Below are positions 2,865-60,183 of a DNA stretch of 64,000 nucleotides, one piece after another. Origin of the DNA: Clostridia bacterium (lineage in GTDB: Bacteria > Bacillota > Peptococcia > DRI-13 > SM3-B62); assembly GCA_018432615.1 (NCBI GenBank), contig JAHDSQ010000016.1, forward strand, positions 1 to 64,000, in the 5' to 3' direction. Position 1 is the stretch's first letter; each line of letters opens with the position of its first letter. Under the pieces are notes generated by a model. The model saw nothing but the letters and a program-made list of their open reading frames with translations. It was not told the DNA's origin and searched no databases. Both the position numbers and the translations under genes were made by a program.

Positions 2865-3158
2865 ATGATTTATTCGGTACATTTTTATTATCATAAAAGG
2901 GGCAGTAGAAAAGCTGCCAGCAAGTTTGAAAGCATTGTGTTTGCCAAGAACCAGGGTCATGCGGAAGAATTAGTTAAAAAACTGATTTCTGATTATCCGA
3001 TTGAGGCTGAAGAACCTTTTAGCATTATTGGAGGCTCGGATATAACGTTAGAAGAGATATATAAGGAGTGTCCAGAGCTTATTGGAATAACACCGGAGCA
3101 AGGGTATATTTATAATGAATTCATTCACAGAAATTCTATAAGCAGGTACGTTCGCTAA
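2865..3158 (+). CDS. Hypothetical protein, 97 residues
   Basis: I do not recognise this family. The ORF has a strong ribosome binding site (GGGAGGAG, 8 bases before the ATG). The N-terminal half looks alpha/beta (IYSVHFYYHKRGSRKA, then FESIVFAKNQGHAEELVKKL), similar in feel to small proteins that cap or modulate a partner. There is no signal peptide, membrane segment or cysteine cluster. It sits between the Avs-like fragment and the metallophosphoesterase on the same strand, with gaps of about 200 and 106 bases, so co-transcription is possible but not proven. Confidence 0.6.
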   Translation: MIYSVHFYYHKRGSRKAASKFESIVFAKNQGHAEELVKKLISDYPIEAEEPFSIIGGSDITLEEIYKECPELIGITPEQGYIYNEFIHRNSISRYVR

Positions 3159-3264
3159 AAGTGACTTTTCCATTATTTATATTATAGGAAACTGGTTTTT
3201 TACTGATGGTTTATAATAGCAATAATGAACTAACAAAATTCAAATTTGTATGTGAGGTATATAA

Positions 3265-5151
3265 ATGAAGTGGATACATTTATCGGATTTACATTTCAAT
3301 CCAATGCAAGATGGAACTGATACCAACTATTTGCGAGAAAAGCTCAAGGAGTTCTTAATTGAAAAGAAAGTTCAAGCTGATAAGATTTTTTTAACAGGAG
3401 ATTTTCGGGATGCGAGCAAACAAGCTGACTCTGATGAAAATGCAGAGAAAGTAGTTCAGTATATCCGTGAAATTGCAGGAATTGTAGGAATAGCGGATTC
3501 ACAAAATATTCTCTGTGTTCCTGGAAATCACGATTTGGAGCGACATATAAATAACCGACAAGAACTGATTCGTGATACTAAAAGATCTTACAGAACGCAA
3601 GATGGTACCTTTGAAAATAGAACAGATTTAGTTGGTGCTTTTACATTCTATAGACGAGTTCTTAATCAGCTATATGGTAAAGAGTACACTAATTGTCTTT
3701 TCGACGCTTACAAAGCAAATCCTCATGGAATTTATCATTATTGTGGCTGCAATATTTTGATGATGAACACCGAGTTGTTTGCTGGAGAAATGGTGATAGC
3801 GGGTGATGGTAAGGAACACGAATATGATGCAGGGAAAATAATTGTCGGAAGTAACTATGTTCTTTCGTTACTTTTGAATGTGAAGCAAACTGGCAATCCA
3901 ACAATTGTTTTAGGGCATAGAGGCTTAGAACTGCTTGAAGCAACAGAGCAAAGAAAACTCCTCAGTCTATTCAGGGATAACAGTGTCTGCTTGTATTTGT
4001 GCGGGCATAGTCATAATTTATGGTTTGAAGAATATGGAGATATTCCACAAATCACAGTTGGATGCATTAAAGAAGCCGATGGGGTAAAAGCGGGTTTTAC
4101 AATTGGAGAATTCCACCCTGAAAGCAATACTATCACAATTGCTGCTTTCTCATGGGATAATAACAACTGGAATGACTATTCTCATTTTTCCAAATATGGT
4201 TCAACCTTACTTTTTGATGTTTCTCAGAACGGGTTATTACCTAGTTCAACCTTTCCATTAACCATCAAAATTGTAATAGACGGAAGGGTGCGTCAATTTA
4301 ATTGCCGAGTTCCTGAAAGTGGGATGACATTTGGCGTGGAGAATTCGCCGATGATTTCTGTGGGTACAGGGGACTTAGTGTGTATAATAAGAAACAATCA
4401 ATTCTCAGACTTAATTACATATAATCACAGATTTATTTTATCAAAGGCTATTTGGAAAGTAATTGGGATGGATAATACAACACATGGAGTCACGAAATTG
4501 ACATGCAAGCGGGAGCTAAAAGGCCCATATGATGATTTAGAATTAGGGATTTCCGGTGTTAATCAAATTTCAAAGTTCAAAATCGAATTACTTGCTCCCA
4601 TTAATAGTATCGGCTTAGATCAACAATTGAAATTTATTCCTCATTTGATTAGAGATATAGAGCAGATCAAAGAGGCCAAACTGTGCGTTAGTATCGCCAA
4701 TGAAAGCGTTTTAACTTTTGACGGAAAAACTATTACTGGCGTATCTTTAGGGGAGACTGAGCTAACTGTTTATTGGGATGATGATAAAGATATTTGTGAA
4801 ACCTTTCATGTTGTAGTTGTAAGTGAACCAGTAAAAAATACTTTCTATCGAGTTTATAAACATGACATAACATTTAGCAAAAAATCTTACTATGACTTCT
4901 CAGTCATAACAAGCAATGATGTACATTTTGGCATAGAGAAGTATGTGAATTGTGAATTAGCTGATATGGATGAAGCCTTCGATTTTCATATTGTAAGGGT
5001 AAAGGATGGAACAGTTATTCCTAAAAGTCTCGAGGGTAATTGTGAGATAAAGGTCAACACTTCATGTATGGATATAGGTGAAAAATATTTACTGACGATT
5101 ACCGGCGAAAGTACAATACAGCTTGAATTTAAAGGTGCGGCTCTGTTTTAA
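3265..5151 (+). CDS. Calcineurin-like metallophosphoesterase with long C-terminal region
   Basis: A protein of 628 residues. The first 300 or so residues form a metallophosphoesterase domain with the full metal-binding set: DLH at about 8-10 (HLSDLHF), GD at about 45 (LTGDFRD), GNHD at about 91 and GHSH at about 245. Such enzymes hydrolyse phosphomono- or phosphodiesters with two metal ions. The remaining 320 residues look beta-rich and resemble no family I know; they may be Ig-like modules used for recognition. There is no signal peptide, so it is cytoplasmic. The substrate cannot be read from the sequence. Its position after an Avs-like fragment, at the edge of a mobile element, makes a nuclease or nucleotide-phosphatase role in defence plausible, but that is inference. 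Confidence 0.8.
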   Translation: MKWIHLSDLHFNPMQDGTDTNYLREKLKEFLIEKKVQADKIFLTGDFRDASKQADSDENAEKVVQYIREIAGIVGIADSQNILCVPGNHDLERHINNRQELIRDTKRSYRTQDGTFENRTDLVGAFTFYRRVLNQLYGKEYTNCLFDAYKANPHGIYHYCGCNILMMNTELFAGEMVIAGDGKEHEYDAGKIIVGSNYVLSLLLNVKQTGNPTIVLGHRGLELLEATEQRKLLSLFRDNSVCLYLCGHSHNLWFEEYGDIPQITVGCIKEADGVKAGFTIGEFHPESNTITIAAFSWDNNNWNDYSHFSKYGSTLLFDVSQNGLLPSSTFPLTIKIVIDGRVRQFNCRVPESGMTFGVENSPMISVGTGDLVCIIRNNQFSDLITYNHRFILSKAIWKVIGMDNTTHGVTKLTCKRELKGPYDDLELGISGVNQISKFKIELLAPINSIGLDQQLKFIPHLIRDIEQIKEAKLCVSIANESVLTFDGKTITGVSLGETELTVYWDDDKDICETFHVVVVSEPVKNTFYRVYKHDITFSKKSYYDFSVITSNDVHFGIEKYVNCELADMDEAFDFHIVRVKDGTVIPKSLEGNCEIKVNTSCMDIGEKYLLTITGESTIQLEFKGAALF

Positions 5152-45460: not shown

Positions 45461-47929
45461 TTATGCCGGGCTAAACCGTCCCTGCGCCCGCGAGCCGGTC
45501 TGCATCAGGTTATAAAGTTCCTGTGATATTCTGCGGATGTCATCCTCGCTGCGGACAATCATCTGCTGTATGTTGATGAGCGAAGGCATACCTGATACCG
45601 CCAAGCCGCCATGAATTCCTGTCACATCACCCATATTTATGCCAGGCGTATCAAAAGAGGTGGGGATAGCGTTCTGCATATCTTCTGCGACTTCATCCAT
45701 CGCCCGTTCGAAGCCTACACCGATACCTTGACCCATGTTCTCGCCAAGTCCGGCAAATAAGGTAGAGGGAGAGTGGATACCGAAGAAGTTTTTGATGCCG
45801 TCGACGATCCCTCCGAAGAAACCGGAGATTTTACCCCAAATCCAATCGGCGACATTTGAAATACCCTGCCACAGACCCTTGATTAGGTCGCTACCGACTT
45901 GCACGATTTTACCGATGTTACCGGTGAATCCTTTTACGATGGCGGTAATAATCTGGGGTACCGCTTTTACGATTTCCACGATGATGGTTGGCAGGTTCTT
46001 TATCAAGGACACGAAAAGCCGGATACCCGCCGCCACAAGCTGCGGAATACTCCCGATAATTGCCGTAATAATGGACGATATGATTTGTGGTATCGCCGCC
46101 ACGATAGCTGTAATAATCTGTGGTAGATTTTGAACCAACGATACTAAAAGCTGAATCCCTGCGTCAATAAGATGTGGAATAGATCCGAGGATCGCTGTAA
46201 TTAAACCCTCGATAATTTGTGGTATTGCCGCCACAATTGCTGTGATGATTTCAGGCAAGGCATCTACTAAAGACACGAGAAGTTGAATTCCAGCATCAAT
46301 AATTTGCGGAATAGCCCCAATGATAAAATCTACAATGCCGAGGATAATTGCTGGCAGAGCAGCGATCAATTGAGGTAGTGCATCCAGGATGCCCTGTGCT
46401 AATCCGAGAATCAGTTGAAGGGCGGCATCAAGTATCATAGGCAGGCTTTCAATTAAGCCTTGAACAATTGTGATCACAGCGTTCACTGCTGCCGGTATCA
46501 ACTGTGGAAGTGCATCGGCGATGCCTGTGACGAGAGTGCTTACTAATTGAACCGCTGCATCAATAAGTAATGGAAGGTTATCAATCAGCGCACCCACAAT
46601 GGTCATAACGGCATCCACGGCGGCGGGGATGAGTTCGGGCAAAAGCGTTAAAATCGTTGTCAGCACCTGTGTGAAAAGATCGACTACCGTAGAGAGCAGA
46701 GTCGGAAGCAAATCACCGATTGCCTGTAGTATCCCGTCGAGGGCAGGCGGCAATGCCCTTACGATATTCTCAATAACTGGAACAATGTTTTTCACGACGT
46801 TCTGGAACGCTTCAACCACATTATTAATCAAAAGTCCGACATCAGCATTGGCATTACCCAACCCTGCCATCAAGTTTCCTATAGCCGATTGCATCCCCGC
46901 CATAGAGCCAGCTATTGTTTCCGTGGCTTCCAAAGCGGTCGTTCCTGTGATTCCCATTTCGGTCTGAATGACATGGATCGCTTCCGTCAAATCGGAAAAT
47001 GAAGAGAGGTCGTATTTAATGCCGGATATTTTTTCGGCATCAGCCAAGAGTCGCTCCATTTCAGATTTTGTGCCGCCATAGCCCAGCTTCAGATTATCGA
47101 GCATAGTATAGTTTTGCTTGGCAAAACCCTGATAGGCTGTCTGAATAGCTGACAGATCCGTCCCCATTTTATTGGCATTATCAGCCATATCAGTAATCGC
47201 CATATCCGCAACCTGCGCTGCCTTTGCGGTATCACCGCCGAGGGACTGAATAAGACTTGCCGAAAAGCCCGTGACGGTTTCCATATATTCGTTGGCGGAC
47301 ATACCGGCGGTCTTGAAAGCATTTTCAGCATACTTTTGAACAGACTGCGACGCTTCACCAAAGAGTGTATCAACACCGCCGACCAGTTGTTCGTAGTCCG
47401 CATAGGCGGATATGACTTCTTTGCCAAGTTTGACGGCAGCGGCTCCGGCTGCAACAGCCACCGCGCCCATTGCCACGCCGATGCCTTTGAGGATACCGCC
47501 CAGTTTCTCGAACTTTCCACCAGACTTTTCTGCGCTGTCAGCAGCGTCCTCAAGTTCCTCACCAAGGTCGTCGGCTTCTTCCGCGGATTCTTCTAATTCA
47601 CGCTCCATGTTGTTAAGTTCTGCGTTGGCATTATTGAGGGCAATCTGCCAGTTTTGAGTACGGCGATCATTTTCACCAAAGCTTTCGGATGCATTTCGAA
47701 GAGCGGCTTCAAGGGTGGATATTTTCTCCTTTTGGGCAGCGATTGCTTTATTGAGGACTTCGTTACGGGCAGCAGTAGCCGCTATGGATTTGTCCTGTTT
47801 GTCGAATTCGCTCGTTACCAGCTTCATTTCGCTACCGAGCACTTTGAATGACTGGTTTATATCACGCAATGCGTTTTTAAATTCCTTTTCGCCCTCGACG
47901 CCTATTTTTAACCCAAAATTGTCAGCCAC
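45461..47929 (-). CDS. Phage tail tape measure protein
   Basis: A protein of 822 residues. N-terminal coiled coil (about 5-140), then a TP901-type tape measure core (about 180-370: GVDTLFGEASQSVQKYAENA, GMSANEYMETVTGFSASL). The middle (about 400-680) is a hydrophobic repeat array with a period of about 40-45 residues containing IPQIIDAGIQLLVSLVDALP-type units. It sets tail length; 822 residues suggests a siphovirus tail of roughly 120 nm. The C-terminus is a short alpha-helical/GIHSPS segment. Confidence 0.92.
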   Translation of the reverse strand: MADNFGLKIGVEGEKEFKNALRDINQSFKVLGSEMKLVTSEFDKQDKSIAATAARNEVLNKAIAAQKEKISTLEAALRNASESFGENDRRTQNWQIALNNANAELNNMERELEESAEEADDLGEELEDAADSAEKSGGKFEKLGGILKGIGVAMGAVAVAAGAAAVKLGKEVISAYADYEQLVGGVDTLFGEASQSVQKYAENAFKTAGMSANEYMETVTGFSASLIQSLGGDTAKAAQVADMAITDMADNANKMGTDLSAIQTAYQGFAKQNYTMLDNLKLGYGGTKSEMERLLADAEKISGIKYDLSSFSDLTEAIHVIQTEMGITGTTALEATETIAGSMAGMQSAIGNLMAGLGNANADVGLLINNVVEAFQNVVKNIVPVIENIVRALPPALDGILQAIGDLLPTLLSTVVDLFTQVLTTILTLLPELIPAAVDAVMTIVGALIDNLPLLIDAAVQLVSTLVTGIADALPQLIPAAVNAVITIVQGLIESLPMILDAALQLILGLAQGILDALPQLIAALPAIILGIVDFIIGAIPQIIDAGIQLLVSLVDALPEIITAIVAAIPQIIEGLITAILGSIPHLIDAGIQLLVSLVQNLPQIITAIVAAIPQIISSIITAIIGSIPQLVAAGIRLFVSLIKNLPTIIVEIVKAVPQIITAIVKGFTGNIGKIVQVGSDLIKGLWQGISNVADWIWGKISGFFGGIVDGIKNFFGIHSPSTLFAGLGENMGQGIGVGFERAMDEVAEDMQNAIPTSFDTPGINMGDVTGIHGGLAVSGMPSLINIQQMIVRSEDDIRRISQELYNLMQTGSRAQGRFSPA
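45930..46700 (-). repeat. Tandem repeats inside the tape measure gene
   Basis: At least six related units of about 125-135 bases encode the pattern AAIPQII then LI-AGIQLLVSLV-LPQIITA. Units are similar but not identical, so they arose by old duplication. Copy number would change tail length and hydrophobicity. Confidence 0.6.
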
Positions 47930-47954
47930 TTAAAACACCTCCCTCCGTAAAAAA

Positions 47955-48529
47955 TCAGATGCCATCTGGAATGACATCTTCAATAAACAGTTCGCGCTTT
48001 GGCTTGACCATTCCAAGGAACTGGCGATGGCATTCCCATAGGTCCAGCAATTGTCCAATTGGGGTAAGCCACGTTTCCTCTTCGGAGCGATTCAGATGAA
48101 CCGTACCGTAATATAAAAGTCGGGTAAACAACTCATCGTCGCTTACCCGACCTCGGCGTTTTTTGACTCACTATACTCGCTTTCGATGTTACGAGCCGTT
48201 CCTTTAAACATCGCCTCAGTAATTGCCGACTTATATACCGCCAGTTCAAGTGGCGAGGTGAGCAATTCCACTTCTTCCTCGGTCAGCAAATCTTTTGGTT
48301 TTTCCTTGTTTCGCAGGTTGTGGATGAGGATGGACTGGTTGGCAAGGAGCGTAATCAGCCAAATAATCTCATCCAGAGCCATCTCGAAGTTTTCTGACCT
48401 CATTAACTTCTCTCCCAAGTTGTCCAGCCCGCCGTATCGTTTGGCGATTTCCTTTGTGGCGCGAGTGGATAAAATCAGCTCATATTCTTTGTCGCCGATT
48501 TTGATAACGGCGCTTCGTTCGTTATCCAT
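47955..48529 (-). CDS. Tail assembly chaperone, frameshifted GT product
   Basis: A -1 shift at the heptamer A-AAA-AAC (48158-48164 on the plus coordinates) takes translation from the G frame into an open frame with no start of its own. The fusion would be 191 residues: 124 of G plus 67 of T (RRGRVSDDELFTRLLYYG to ELFIEDVIPDGI). A six-base spacer and a perfect 9-bp stem-loop follow the heptamer. Position between the major tail protein and tape measure genes is the classic G/GT locus of siphoviruses, where the fusion coats the tape measure protein during tail assembly. Confidence 0.85.
48119..48164 (-). promoter_or_regulatory. Programmed -1 frameshift signal
   Basis: Reading the minus strand: slippery AAAAAAC in the phase A-AAA-AAC (48164-48158), spacer GCCGAG (6 bases), then a stem GTCGGGTAA / TTACCCGAC (48151-48143 with 48127-48119, loop of 15). 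The G stop codon TAA lies in the 5' arm of the stem. All three parts of a canonical signal are present. Confidence 0.85.
48143..48529 (-). CDS. Tail assembly chaperone G (unshifted product)
   Basis: A protein of 128 residues. N-terminal beta strand (AVIKIGDKEYELILST) then helices with RYGGLDNLGEKL and EMALDEIIWLITLLANQ, the pattern of tail assembly chaperones of Gram-positive siphoviruses. It ends at TAA four codons after the slippery site. It would be the abundant form, with the GT fusion as a minor form. Start ATG 48529 lies next to the end of the major tail protein gene. Confidence 0.85.
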   Translation of the reverse strand: MDNERSAVIKIGDKEYELILSTRATKEIAKRYGGLDNLGEKLMRSENFEMALDEIIWLITLLANQSILIHNLRNKEKPKDLLTEEEVELLTSPLELAVYKSAITEAMFKGTARNIESEYSESKNAEVG

Positions 48530-48532
48530 GCA

Positions 48533-49132
48533 TTAAACCTCCAAATCCGTGTCAAATTCAGGTTCGTATACTTCCGTATACCAATCACTGGTCACAACCG
48601 GTAGTACATCCACATCATCTTCGTTAACTTCCGCTTTCCATGGATGACGACCATTACCGTCCGGTTTATTGCGTCGGGAAACAGTGCCTTCAATACTTGG
48701 CGTTGAAAAGGTGATACTATCACCCTTGGTGGCAAGATTGGTGGACGGAATGCCGAACTTGACGCGGTAAAGCCAGAAGTAGCGATACTTACCATTCGCT
48801 TTTTTCGCTCGAAATCCAATAGCGACAGGCTCGCCACCATCCTCTGAAGCAGAGATAAGAACACCGTTTTCATCTGTGGTCGCGCCCGTCAGTTTTGCGG
48901 CGACGGTTTTACCAATGTCGTCCACACCAAGGGTCAGTTTGCCGTTCTTGAATTCCTTGATAATTTCGGCGGCACCGTCATCCGCCCAAAGTGTCGCTTC
49001 CGCAAGTTCGATTGATAGTTCAGCTGAGATTGCCTTTGCTAGCATTACCGGAGCGCCGTAGGTTTCGTAACCCGTAGTAGGCGCTTCGGTGATTGGTGCG
49101 TAGTAGAGTTTATCAAGCCCAATTGTAGCCAT
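48533..49132 (-). CDS. Major tail protein
   Basis: A protein of 199 residues. MATIGLDKLYYAPITEAPTT followed by ETYGAPVMLAKAISAEL and LTLGVDDIG, with acidic C-terminus, match the phi13-type major tail tube protein of Gram-positive siphoviruses. CGGAGGAA precedes the ATG at 49132; the longer frame has no support. It polymerises into the tail tube. Confidence 0.88.
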   Translation of the reverse strand: MATIGLDKLYYAPITEAPTTGYETYGAPVMLAKAISAELSIELAEATLWADDGAAEIIKEFKNGKLTLGVDDIGKTVAAKLTGATTDENGVLISASEDGGEPVAIGFRAKKANGKYRYFWLYRVKFGIPSTNLATKGDSITFSTPSIEGTVSRRNKPDGNGRHPWKAEVNEDDVDVLPVVTSDWYTEVYEPEFDTDLEV

Positions 49133-49133
49133 G

Positions 49134-49478
49134 TTAAATTTCCTCCGTTTCGTATTCTTTCGCCACATCGATGGCGTAGTGGTGATAGCCGGTGTCATCC
49201 TCGTGCCCGATATACCGGCGGTCGGTAATAACAAAATCAGCTTGGAGGAGCATCCTCACAAGCTGATTCTTTCTTTGTAAATAGTTGTTTTTACTGAACA
49301 GCGAGATTCTGACTTCGCTTACATCCGCCAGCGGCTTATTATCTCCGTAAACGGCAAAGGTGTCAGTAAGCGGGGTCAGTACCAGGTATTCATCAGGAGG
49401 TATTCCGCTGAAGACGCCTGTTTCGACAGAGATATTTGCGGTTTCAAACAGTGTGTTCAGTTCAGATAATATGCTCAT
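49134..49478 (-). CDS. Tail completion / terminator-type protein
   Basis: A protein of 114 residues, alpha/beta, with VYGDNKPLADVSEVRISLFSK in the centre. Sequence and place between the HK97 gp10-like gene and the major tail protein match the tail completion proteins of HK97-type phages. It overlaps the previous gene by 4 bases. Confidence 0.7.
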   Translation of the reverse strand: MSILSELNTLFETANISVETGVFSGIPPDEYLVLTPLTDTFAVYGDNKPLADVSEVRISLFSKNNYLQRKNQLVRMLLQADFVITDRRYIGHEDDTGYHHYAIDVAKEYETEEI

Positions 49479-49906
49479 AGCTTCTCAATCTCACTTTCCA
49501 GCTTATTGGTCATAGCCTCAATGCAAGCACCTCTTGATCTGCTTTTGGCAGGTTTCAGAAAAGGCTTCGGAGGCTGTCCATGTTTTCCGTATTCGAGGAT
49601 GTTGGCAAGTTTGGCATTGCTGCCGCCGTCAGAGCGCGGCTCTGCAAAGCCTATTTTCACGTTGAAATTACCATCTCTGTCTTGCTTCGCCGGAGATACA
49701 CCAAGCGCAGATTCAAGTTCTCCGGTGGAGTGGCTTTTAACCTTTGTGTTTTTACCGACCACAGAAGAAAGATTGCTTTTTACCTTGTCATATACGACTT
49801 CAGCACCGGCTTCAAGAACCTTCGGTATAATCTCATCGGTCTTTTCAGCCAACCTTGACACTTTGAGCAGGAATTCCTCCGGCATCTTGAAATCGACCTT
49901 AGCCAT
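49475..49906 (-). CDS. HK97 gp10-like head-tail protein
   Basis: A protein of 143 residues. Helical N-terminus, then ALGVSPAKQDRDGNFNVKIGF and a basic C-terminus with YGKHGQPPKPFLKPA, the typical HK97-gp10_like pattern. It takes part in head-tail joining. Start overlaps the head closure gene by 8 bases. Confidence 0.8.
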   Translation of the reverse strand: MAKVDFKMPEEFLLKVSRLAEKTDEIIPKVLEAGAEVVYDKVKSNLSSVVGKNTKVKSHSTGELESALGVSPAKQDRDGNFNVKIGFAEPRSDGGSNAKLANILEYGKHGQPPKPFLKPAKSRSRGACIEAMTNKLESEIEKL

Positions 49907-50225
49907 CAGCGCTCACCGCCAATACTTCAAGATACATTCCTCGGCCCTTTACATTTTCAACCGAGTATATGTTGTAGCGTTTGCCCTCGCAGACGATAAC
50001 ATGGCGGTTGTGAAGAGCAAGTCCGGGAATCGTGCGGAGACGGAACAAGGCATTCACTTCATCTGATCGCGCCATGTTACGCCACTTTTCCGTAGAGTTT
50101 TTCTGCTCAAAATATGCCCTGACTGACGCAAGAGCAGTATCACCATGACTAACAAAACCGTCAGCATCCTTCGTGGGGTCGGTTGAGATAATATCGATGA
50201 ATGTGTTTATTTTTCCAAAACTCAT
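49899..50225 (-). CDS. Phage head closure protein
   Basis: A protein of 108 residues. ASVRAYFEQKNSTEKWRNMA and HNRHVIVCEGKRYNIYSVEN fit the SPP1 gp16 / lambda FII-like head closure (head-tail adaptor) family. It plugs the portal after packaging. Start MSFGKINTFI at 50225 is placed 3 bases after the upstream stop. Confidence 0.8.
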   Translation of the reverse strand: MSFGKINTFIDIISTDPTKDADGFVSHGDTALASVRAYFEQKNSTEKWRNMARSDEVNALFRLRTIPGLALHNRHVIVCEGKRYNIYSVENVKGRGMYLEVLAVSADG

Positions 50226-58884: not shown

Positions 58885-60183
58885 TCATACCTCCAGCTTT
58901 ACAGCAGTCCCACCGGTGAATGTTTCCCAGCGCTTTACGATGAGATCACAGTAGACCGGCGAAATCTCCATCGCATAGCACCTGCGTTCGGTCTGTTCAC
59001 AGGCGATGAGCGTCGTTCCACAGCCCGCGAAAGGTTCAAGTACCACACCGCCACGGTCAGAATGCATTTTAATGCATCGCCACGGCAACTCGACAGGAAA
59101 CATAGCAGGGTGATCTTTATTGGCTCGCACAGTAGATATTTCCCAAATTCCGGCATAGCCCCAGTTTTTACGCTCATCCTTGGTGAGCCGCTTCACAAAC
59201 TTATAGGAATGGCCGGCGAATGCCGAAACCCAAGCAAACTCTTGGTCGTTGTATTCATCAGTTTCCTGCGCAGCCAGCGCCGTGATATATTCGTACTGCT
59301 GCACCGGTTTATTTGTCACAAGGTGATAGGGTGAATTACCGAAATTCATGCCTTGCTTTTTCCAAATGCGAATCCAGATAGGACGAAAGCCGTTGTCAGC
59401 AAATAGTCCAATGCTATACATTTCGGTTGGTTCAATAAACTGGGTACCTGTGGCATATAGGTCTCCGATGTTCCAACAGACAATGTCTGCGTTTTTACAG
59501 ATGTTCTTTATAGCGGGGCGCATCGTTTCAAACCACGGTTCGATCCCGGCTTTTTCATATTCTTTTCCAACGCCGTATGGAGGAGAGGTAACTGCGCACT
59601 GAGCGTGGGCACCGTCCATCAGATGGTCGAAATCCACCTCGATGGTACTGTCGCCGCACAAAAGCCGATGCTGTCCAAGCAGCCAGATATCTCCTGTATG
59701 AGTTCGTGTTTCGCCAACAGCTTCAATGGCTTCCTTTTCTTTGTCTACGTCGAAGTCATCCTGTATAGCTTCCTTCGAGTAAAATTTATTTAGGAGTGCG
59801 TCTACTTCGTCAGCATCAAAACCTGTAAGAGATACGTCAAATGTAGATGCGTCAAACTCTGCCATGAGCGATGCCAGCTTTGCTTCGTCCCAATCGCCCT
59901 GTATTTTATTAAGTGCAAGGTTAAGTGCTTTTTCACGTTTGTCATCAAGCTCAACAATCACGCAGTCGATTTCCGTCTGCCCAAGGTCGAGTAGCACTTT
60001 CAACCGCTGGTGACCTCCAACCACGTTACCGGTGGTCTTATTCCAGATGATCGGTTCCACATAACCGAACTCCGCAATAGAGCGCTTGAGCTTTTCGTAT
60101 TCCTTGTCACCTGGCTTCAGGTCTTTTCGAGGGTTATATGCAGCTGGATCGAGCTTTGCCGCGGGTATCTTTTCAATCAGCAT
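58885..60183 (-). CDS. ParB-like domain fused to DNA methyltransferase (TSPPY type)
   Basis: A protein of 432 residues. ParB-like part at 1-90 (AAYNPRKDLKPGDKEYEKLK, GGHQRLKVLLDLGQ); motif IV TSPPYGVGKEY (about 196) and motif I EPFAGCGTTLIACEQ (about 382), again beta-class order. TSPPY is typical of N4-cytosine enzymes. The ParB parts of this and the next gene are nearly collinear, so they stem from duplication, but the catalytic motifs differ. Start overlaps metK by 11 bases. Confidence 0.88.
   Translation of the reverse strand: MLIEKIPAAKLDPAAYNPRKDLKPGDKEYEKLKRSIAEFGYVEPIIWNKTTGNVVGGHQRLKVLLDLGQTEIDCVIVELDDKREKALNLALNKIQGDWDEAKLASLMAEFDASTFDVSLTGFDADEVDALLNKFYSKEAIQDDFDVDKEKEAIEAVGETRTHTGDIWLLGQHRLLCGDSTIEVDFDHLMDGAHAQCAVTSPPYGVGKEYEKAGIEPWFETMRPAIKNICKNADIVCWNIGDLYATGTQFIEPTEMYSIGLFADNGFRPIWIRIWKKQGMNFGNSPYHLVTNKPVQQYEYITALAAQETDEYNDQEFAWVSAFAGHSYKFVKRLTKDERKNWGYAGIWEISTVRANKDHPAMFPVELPWRCIKMHSDRGGVVLEPFAGCGTTLIACEQTERRCYAMEISPVYCDLIVKRWETFTGGTAVKLEV

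What the first reader, a model, noticed from the sequence alone, without database searches (positions are those of the whole stretch)
48119..48529. Textbook -1 frameshift signal in the tail chaperone gene
The heptamer A-AAA-AAC is in the correct phase of the G frame, with a 6-base spacer and a perfect 9-bp stem-loop. The -1 frame is open for 67 codons, has no start of its own and ends just before the tape measure gene. The TAA of the short product lies within the stem, so termination and structure are linked.
Basis: partly seen in the sequence, partly recalled or inferred. Interest (0 to 1): 0.6.

Follow-up and report, generated by a model that had tools for sequence, protein, structure and literature searches.

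The report
Tail-chaperone frameshift signal in a prophage
A viral genome lodged in a Clostridia-type bacterium carries a well-conserved signal that very probably makes some ribosomes slip back one base, so that one gene yields a short and a long tail-building helper protein; this trick is known from many phages, but this large family of it has not been annotated.

Summary
On the minus strand, A_AAA_AAC (48164-48158) lies in phase at the end of gene G. It is followed by a 6-nt spacer and a perfect 9-bp stem that extends to 14 bp, and the -1 frame is open for 67 codons up to the tape measure gene. Of 246 fetched relatives with both parts, 244 keep the -1 relation and 236 keep A_AAA_AAC. The codon before the slip encodes ten different amino acids yet ends in A in 170 of 171 distinct regions. 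The hairpin shows strong compensatory change. The extension is under purifying selection and has no early stop. Fold comparison places G with tail assembly chaperones. The best reading is programmed -1 ribosomal frameshifting that makes G and GT, as in lambda. Frameshifting itself was not measured. So a link between termination and structure is not needed. This is a new, unannotated family of a known kind (phrog_2115 plus phrog_10988).

The parts
48143..48529 (-). gene G, tail assembly chaperone, 128 aa, short product
   Evidence: phrog_2115 tail protein E 5e-29; fold close to predicted tail assembly chaperones in BFVD; sits between phi13-type major tail protein and tape measure gene
48158..48164 (-). 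slippery heptamer A_AAA_AAC (zero frame TCA AAA AAC)
   Evidence: sequence; kept in 236 of 246 relatives with both parts
48152..48157 (-). 6-nt spacer
   Evidence: sequence; ungapped in the 86-row alignment
48143..48151 (-). 5' arm of the hairpin, including the TAA stop of G at 48145-48143
   Evidence: fold, compensatory changes
48119..48127 (-). 3' arm of the hairpin
   Evidence: fold, compensatory changes
48128..48142 (-). inner part: 5 more pairs (48142-48138 with 48132-48128) and 5-nt loop
   Evidence: fold; inner pairs partly kept, with double changes at two of them in 17-20 sequences
47955..48158 (-). -1 frame T extension, 67 codons plus TGA; made only as GT
   Evidence: phrog_10988 (unknown function) E 2e-25; no early stop in 158 relatives, pN/pS 0.20 against 1.2-1.5 in the other frames
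48176..48183 (-). weak Shine-Dalgarno-like stretch upstream of the slip site (possible stimulator)
   Evidence: duplex -3.6 kcal/mol; family mean -5.6 against -3.9 elsewhere in G, but little more than the encoded Glu-rich peptide predicts: inconclusive
48533..49234 (-). major tail protein (context)
   Evidence: TIGR01603 phi13 type, E 4e-27
45461..47929 (-). tape measure protein (context)
   Evidence: phrog_58 E 2e-113

Best explanation
A programmed -1 ribosomal frameshift. Most ribosomes read G to the TAA and make the 128-aa chaperone. A minority, held by the hairpin with AAA in the P site and AAC in the A site, slip back one base (both tRNAs re-pair on AAA AAA), pass the stop out of frame, and add the 67-residue T domain, giving GT of about 191 residues. 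By analogy with lambda, G coats the tape measure protein and the T part recruits the major tail protein, so the G to GT ratio matters. Shown here: motif, phase, hairpin, their conservation and covariation, coding selection on T, chaperone-like fold of G. Inferred: that frameshifting happens, its efficiency, and the roles of G and T.
For: 244 of 246 relatives keep T in the -1 frame relative to G; 236 have A_AAA_AAC; the rest mostly have other valid heptamers (AAAAAAT in 3, CCCAAAC in 1, CCCAAAA directly before TAA in 4). The codon ending in the first A encodes S, P, L, A, Q, T, G, E or V with wobble A in 170 of 171 distinct regions, against 11-30% A for most of these residues elsewhere in G. 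In-phase A_AAA_AAC occurs elsewhere in G at 4 of 20510 codons. Hairpin: 91.6% of cells paired, 115 double-change cells against 29 in shuffles; slid controls give 30-45% paired. T: no stops, pN/pS 0.20. Spacer of 6 nt is within the 5-8 nt usual for such signals (PMC4066793). Gene order and a TAC-like G fold. A divergent copy in the same genome has the same heptamer, a hairpin near the same spacing and a T-like -1 frame.
Against: No expression data. A_AAA_AAC is much less slippery than A_AAA_AAG in E. coli (PMC5009743), so efficiency in Clostridia is unknown. T has no detectable fold match in the PDB. G of this window has no meaningful Pfam or NCBIfam match.
Confidence: 0.96

Rival explanations
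1. Transcriptional slippage on the A run makes mixed mRNAs, and the fusion comes from these.
For: There is an A6 run at the shift site.
Against: The run is exactly 6 in 158 of 171 distinct regions, 7 in 8, and only 3-4 in 5 variants that still keep T; selection for polymerase slippage should lengthen it. Phase, wobble A and the spaced hairpin have no reason under this model.
Confidence: 0.02
2. T is a separate protein, translated by reinitiation or from an internal start.
For: Public records annotate T as a separate short hypothetical protein; a TTG lies at T codon 10.
Against: No start-like codon in T is conserved (best 58-59%), and conserved residues lie upstream of the starts used in most annotations. 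The conserved slip motif would be unexplained.
Confidence: 0.02
3. The hairpin is mainly a transcription terminator or attenuator ahead of the tape measure gene.
For: A 14-bp hairpin is followed by TTTTATAT, and 8 bases after the stem hold 5.3 T on average against 4.3 expected from synonymous codons.
Against: Those bases encode conserved L-[LIFY]-Y-Y and often read CTGATTTTT or CTGCTCTAC, so no clean U run is kept; the terminator scan does not list it; fixed spacing to the heptamer is unexplained. It could be a minor second role.
Confidence: 0.04
4. The stop codon inside the stem is a working part: terminating ribosomes hold the hairpin open and so couple termination rate to frameshifting of the next ribosome.
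For: 157 of 171 distinct regions have the stop at this position, and TAA to TGA changes go with matching 3'-arm changes.
Against: 14 regions have the stop elsewhere, with the stem kept in those inspected (L053, L080, L054 group), and L252 has it in the loop. Overlap of two frames and a stem explains the position.
Confidence: 0.1

Closest known systems
lambda G/GT tail assembly chaperone frameshift (Xu, Hendrix and Duda 2004; reviewed in PMC5009743)
   Same: Same place between major tail protein and tape measure genes, same -1 direction near the 3' end of G, short plus extended product.
   Different: Lambda's heptamer is G_GGA_AAG and its signal is not known for a strong hairpin (from memory); here A_AAA_AAC with a covarying hairpin; direct sequence comparison with lambda was not made.
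TP901-1 gpG/gpGT of Lactococcus (PMC4493119)
   Same: Gram-positive siphovirus; -1 slip makes GT; mutants lacking GT make no tails, and a forced fusion is not infectious.
   Different: Heptamer GGGAAAG.
Paenibacillus larvae phages (PMC6003738)
   Same: Tail assembly genes with AAAAAAG, and possibly AAAAAAC in Dragolir.
   Different: Only tentative in that paper; no conserved structure reported in the passages read.
E. coli dnaX frameshift signal
   Same: A-rich heptamer, hairpin a few nt downstream, purine-rich stretch upstream (dnaX details from memory and PMC5009743).
   Different: Cellular gene, A_AAA_AAG, proven Shine-Dalgarno stimulator; here the upstream element is not established.

Membership tests
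Programmed -1 frameshift signal (X_XXY_YYZ type) | Heptamer in phase inside the overlap of the two frames | tested here: met
Programmed -1 frameshift signal (X_XXY_YYZ type) | Motif conserved beyond coding need | tested here: met
   wobble A kept while amino acid changes
Programmed -1 frameshift signal (X_XXY_YYZ type) | Downstream stimulatory structure at 5-8 nt | tested here: met
   6-nt spacer, covarying stem; stimulation itself not measured
Programmed -1 frameshift signal (X_XXY_YYZ type) | Upstream Shine-Dalgarno-like stimulator (optional in bacteria) | tested here: inconclusive
Programmed -1 frameshift signal (X_XXY_YYZ type) | Fusion protein is made | not testable with these tools
   needs reporter or mass spectrometry
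Phage tail assembly chaperone G/GT | Gene order major tail protein - G - T - tape measure | tested here: met
Phage tail assembly chaperone G/GT | G resembles known chaperones in sequence or fold | tested here: met
   phrog_2115 tail protein; BFVD tail assembly chaperones E 3.5e-5; HK97 2ob9 and YqbN 3klu at only Z 3.1, so the solved-structure part is weak
Phage tail assembly chaperone G/GT | T domain only reached by frameshift and under selection | tested here: met
   no conserved start, pN/pS 0.20
Phage tail assembly chaperone G/GT | G binds tape measure, T binds major tail protein | not testable with these tools
   binding assay needed

The most novel reading that the evidence does not exclude
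The stop codon of G sits in the stimulatory stem because termination and hairpin refolding are coupled, so that the GT share responds to termination rate or ribosome traffic.
Probability: 0.08. Interest if true: 0.55.

Novelty: new member of a known kind. Interest (0 to 1): 0.3.

Why it matters
It gives a likely function to phrog_10988 (unknown function; also in phages placed in Ca. Heliusvirales): it is the T part of a frameshifted tail chaperone. The public records read here list two separate genes and no fusion. The family has hundreds of natural variants, including changed heptamers, moved stops and rebuilt stems, which makes a good test set for how heptamer, spacing and hairpin set frameshift efficiency in Gram-positive bacteria.

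Tried and rejected
Rfam found no known RNA family at the site. The upstream Shine-Dalgarno-like element looked strong at first but a synonymous-codon control removed most of the signal (44% of simulated codings as strong). The hairpin as terminator was tested and is weak. A search for relatives of the divergent copy L252 in viral contigs found none. Foldseek of G and of T against the PDB gave no significant match. I first thought the group II intron in L003 might be a hairpin-targeting class C intron; its 596-aa protein carries an HNH-like C-terminus by eye, which class C introns lack (from memory), so I dropped that. L253, fetched as a second intron case, is unrelated. Both remaining refusals were coordinate slips of mine, corrected.

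Full report
What is there. The minus strand carries a phage head-tail operon: portal and major capsid protein (TIGR01537, TIGR01554), major tail protein (TIGR01603), gene G at 48529-48143, the -1 frame T at 48158-47955, the tape measure gene at 47929-45461, then distal tail protein and tail spike genes. G ends TCA AAA AAC GCC GAG GTC GGG TAA. The heptamer A_AAA_AAC is in phase, the spacer is 6 nt, and GTCGGGTAA pairs perfectly with TTACCCGAC. RNA folding gives a longer hairpin, -26.7 kcal/mol, z -7.3.

Is it more than chance? Yes. Of 30 AAAAAAC heptamers in the window this is the only one followed by such a stem; random positions have a perfect stem of 9 bp or more in 10 of 6000 cases, and no random 49-mer of 3000 folds as stably. 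The much stronger evidence is comparative.

Relatives. Both parts are found in 19 phage records (20 hold at least part of G), including phages filed under Ca. Heliusvirales, Streptococcus phage Javan630 and Erysipelothrix phage phi1605, and in loci fetched from viral contigs by G (80), from genome contigs by G (80) and from viral contigs by T (80) (some contigs appear twice). Over all loci, 246 hold both parts; 244 have T in the -1 frame; of the two others one carries an intron (L003) and one has its G frame shifted relative to T (L164). A_AAA_AAC is present in 236. The exceptions are mostly informative: AAAAAAT in L006, L155, L190; CCCAAAC in L059; and CCCAAAA followed at once by TAA in L054, L061, L072, L089. 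All are X_XXY_YYZ motifs.

The motif itself is selected. Over 171 distinct regions the codon that ends in the first A encodes S, P, L, A, Q, T, G, E or V, and its third base is A in all but one (L059, where the heptamer is CCC AAA C). Elsewhere in G these residues end in A in 11-30% of cases for most, 54% for Glu. AAA makes up 48% of Lys codons and AAC 57% of Asn codons elsewhere, but nearly all here. The sequences are related, so no probability is quoted; the variety of amino acids shows many separate substitutions around a fixed wobble base.

The hairpin is selected. In an ungapped alignment of 86 distinct sequences, the 14-pair structure is paired in 91.6% of cells, with 115 cells changed on both sides against 29 in shuffles and 6-35 in slid controls. 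The outer arm appears in several fully paired versions, for example GTCGGG with CCCGAC, GCCGAG with CTCGGC, GGCGCG with CGCGCC, and GGCGTG with CACGCC. RNAalifold on its own finds the same stem.

T is coding. It has no stop before residue 55 in 158 relatives, median pN/pS 0.20 against 1.2 and 1.5 for the other two frames of the same bases, and no conserved start codon. It matches phrog_10988, of unknown function. Its model is a small helical domain without PDB match.

G is a chaperone by context and fold. phrog_2115 is called tail protein. The predicted fold, a beta hairpin followed by helices, matches predicted tail assembly chaperones in BFVD at E 3.5e-5 and 2.1e-4, and others called tail tube protein. 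Among solved structures, HK97 chaperone 2ob9 and YqbN 3klu appear at Z 3.1, which alone would be weak.

The stop in the stem. The stop is 12 nt after the heptamer in 157 of 171 distinct regions, and TAA to TGA changes go with matching changes in the other arm. But the stop has moved in 14 regions, with the stem kept in those I inspected in the alignment (L053, L080 and the L054 group), and in a divergent third copy in the same genome (L252, G 1489-1893, phrog_2115 E 1e-7) the heptamer TCA AAA AAC is followed by a hairpin with the stop in its loop. The -1 frame of L252 aligns with T over 36 columns at E 4.6e-5, probability 68%. So the stop in the stem is common and probably tolerated rather than needed.

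Upstream element. A purine-rich stretch 10-18 nt upstream pairs with the anti-Shine-Dalgarno better than the rest of G (-5.6 against -3.9), but random synonymous codings of the same Glu-rich peptide do nearly as well. I leave it as inconclusive.

Known background. G/GT frameshifting is described in lambda and many tailed phages (PMC5009743), in TP901-1 with mutants (PMC4493119), and suggested with AAAAAAC in one Paenibacillus phage (PMC6003738). A_AAA_AAC is much less shifty than A_AAA_AAG in E. coli. GeneTack work measured 6-7% for two tail chaperone genes (PMC3711429); no value can be given here. I found no paper on this family, though the library is open-access only.

Verdict. A well-supported, ordinary but unannotated case of a known mechanism: new member of a known kind, interest 0.3.

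Noticed in passing
L003 6419-8889 (PV036457.1; L120 is the same sequence in a MAG): A 2471-bp group II intron with its own maturase (Rfam RF00029 E 2.6e-9; TIGR04416) sits inside the T frame about 10 nt after the frameshift hairpin; joining the exons gives FTRLLY/YGTVHLN, so exact splicing would restore T in the -1 frame. G is untouched, so splicing would control GT alone.
   Followed up: partly
L054, L061, L072, L089: One lineage has CCA AAA TAA at the slip site: C_CCA_AAA followed at once by the stop, with the hairpin kept; a natural test of a stop in the next codon.
   Followed up: partly
window 46001-50000 against L090 and L091: This tail region is 96-98% identical to prophages in Acetanaerobacterium elongatum and Anaerocolumna aminovalerica, hosts I believe to be of different families, which points to recent transfer.
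   Followed up: no
L090 about 3114-3420, equivalent to window 47916-47924: The A. elongatum copy has about 300 extra bases near the tape measure start, with a 9-base overlap of the flanks that could be a target duplication.
   Followed up: no
G000:C15:132738-133109 (L251/L002) and G000:C42:95666-95974 (L252): The same genome holds two more G genes, one close and one divergent, with TTA AAA AAC and TCA AAA AAC respectively, each followed by a hairpin.
   Followed up: yes
window 47979-47957, minus strand: A terminator-like hairpin with a T6 run overlaps the end of T just before the tape measure gene; relatives vary.
   Followed up: partly
L164 (Anaerocolumna sedimenticola): The G frame is out of register with T near the slip site, which suggests a decayed prophage or a sequence error.
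   Followed up: no
window 58885-60183, minus strand: One gene joins a ParB-like N-terminus with an adenine-specific DNA methyltransferase C-terminus.
   Followed up: no
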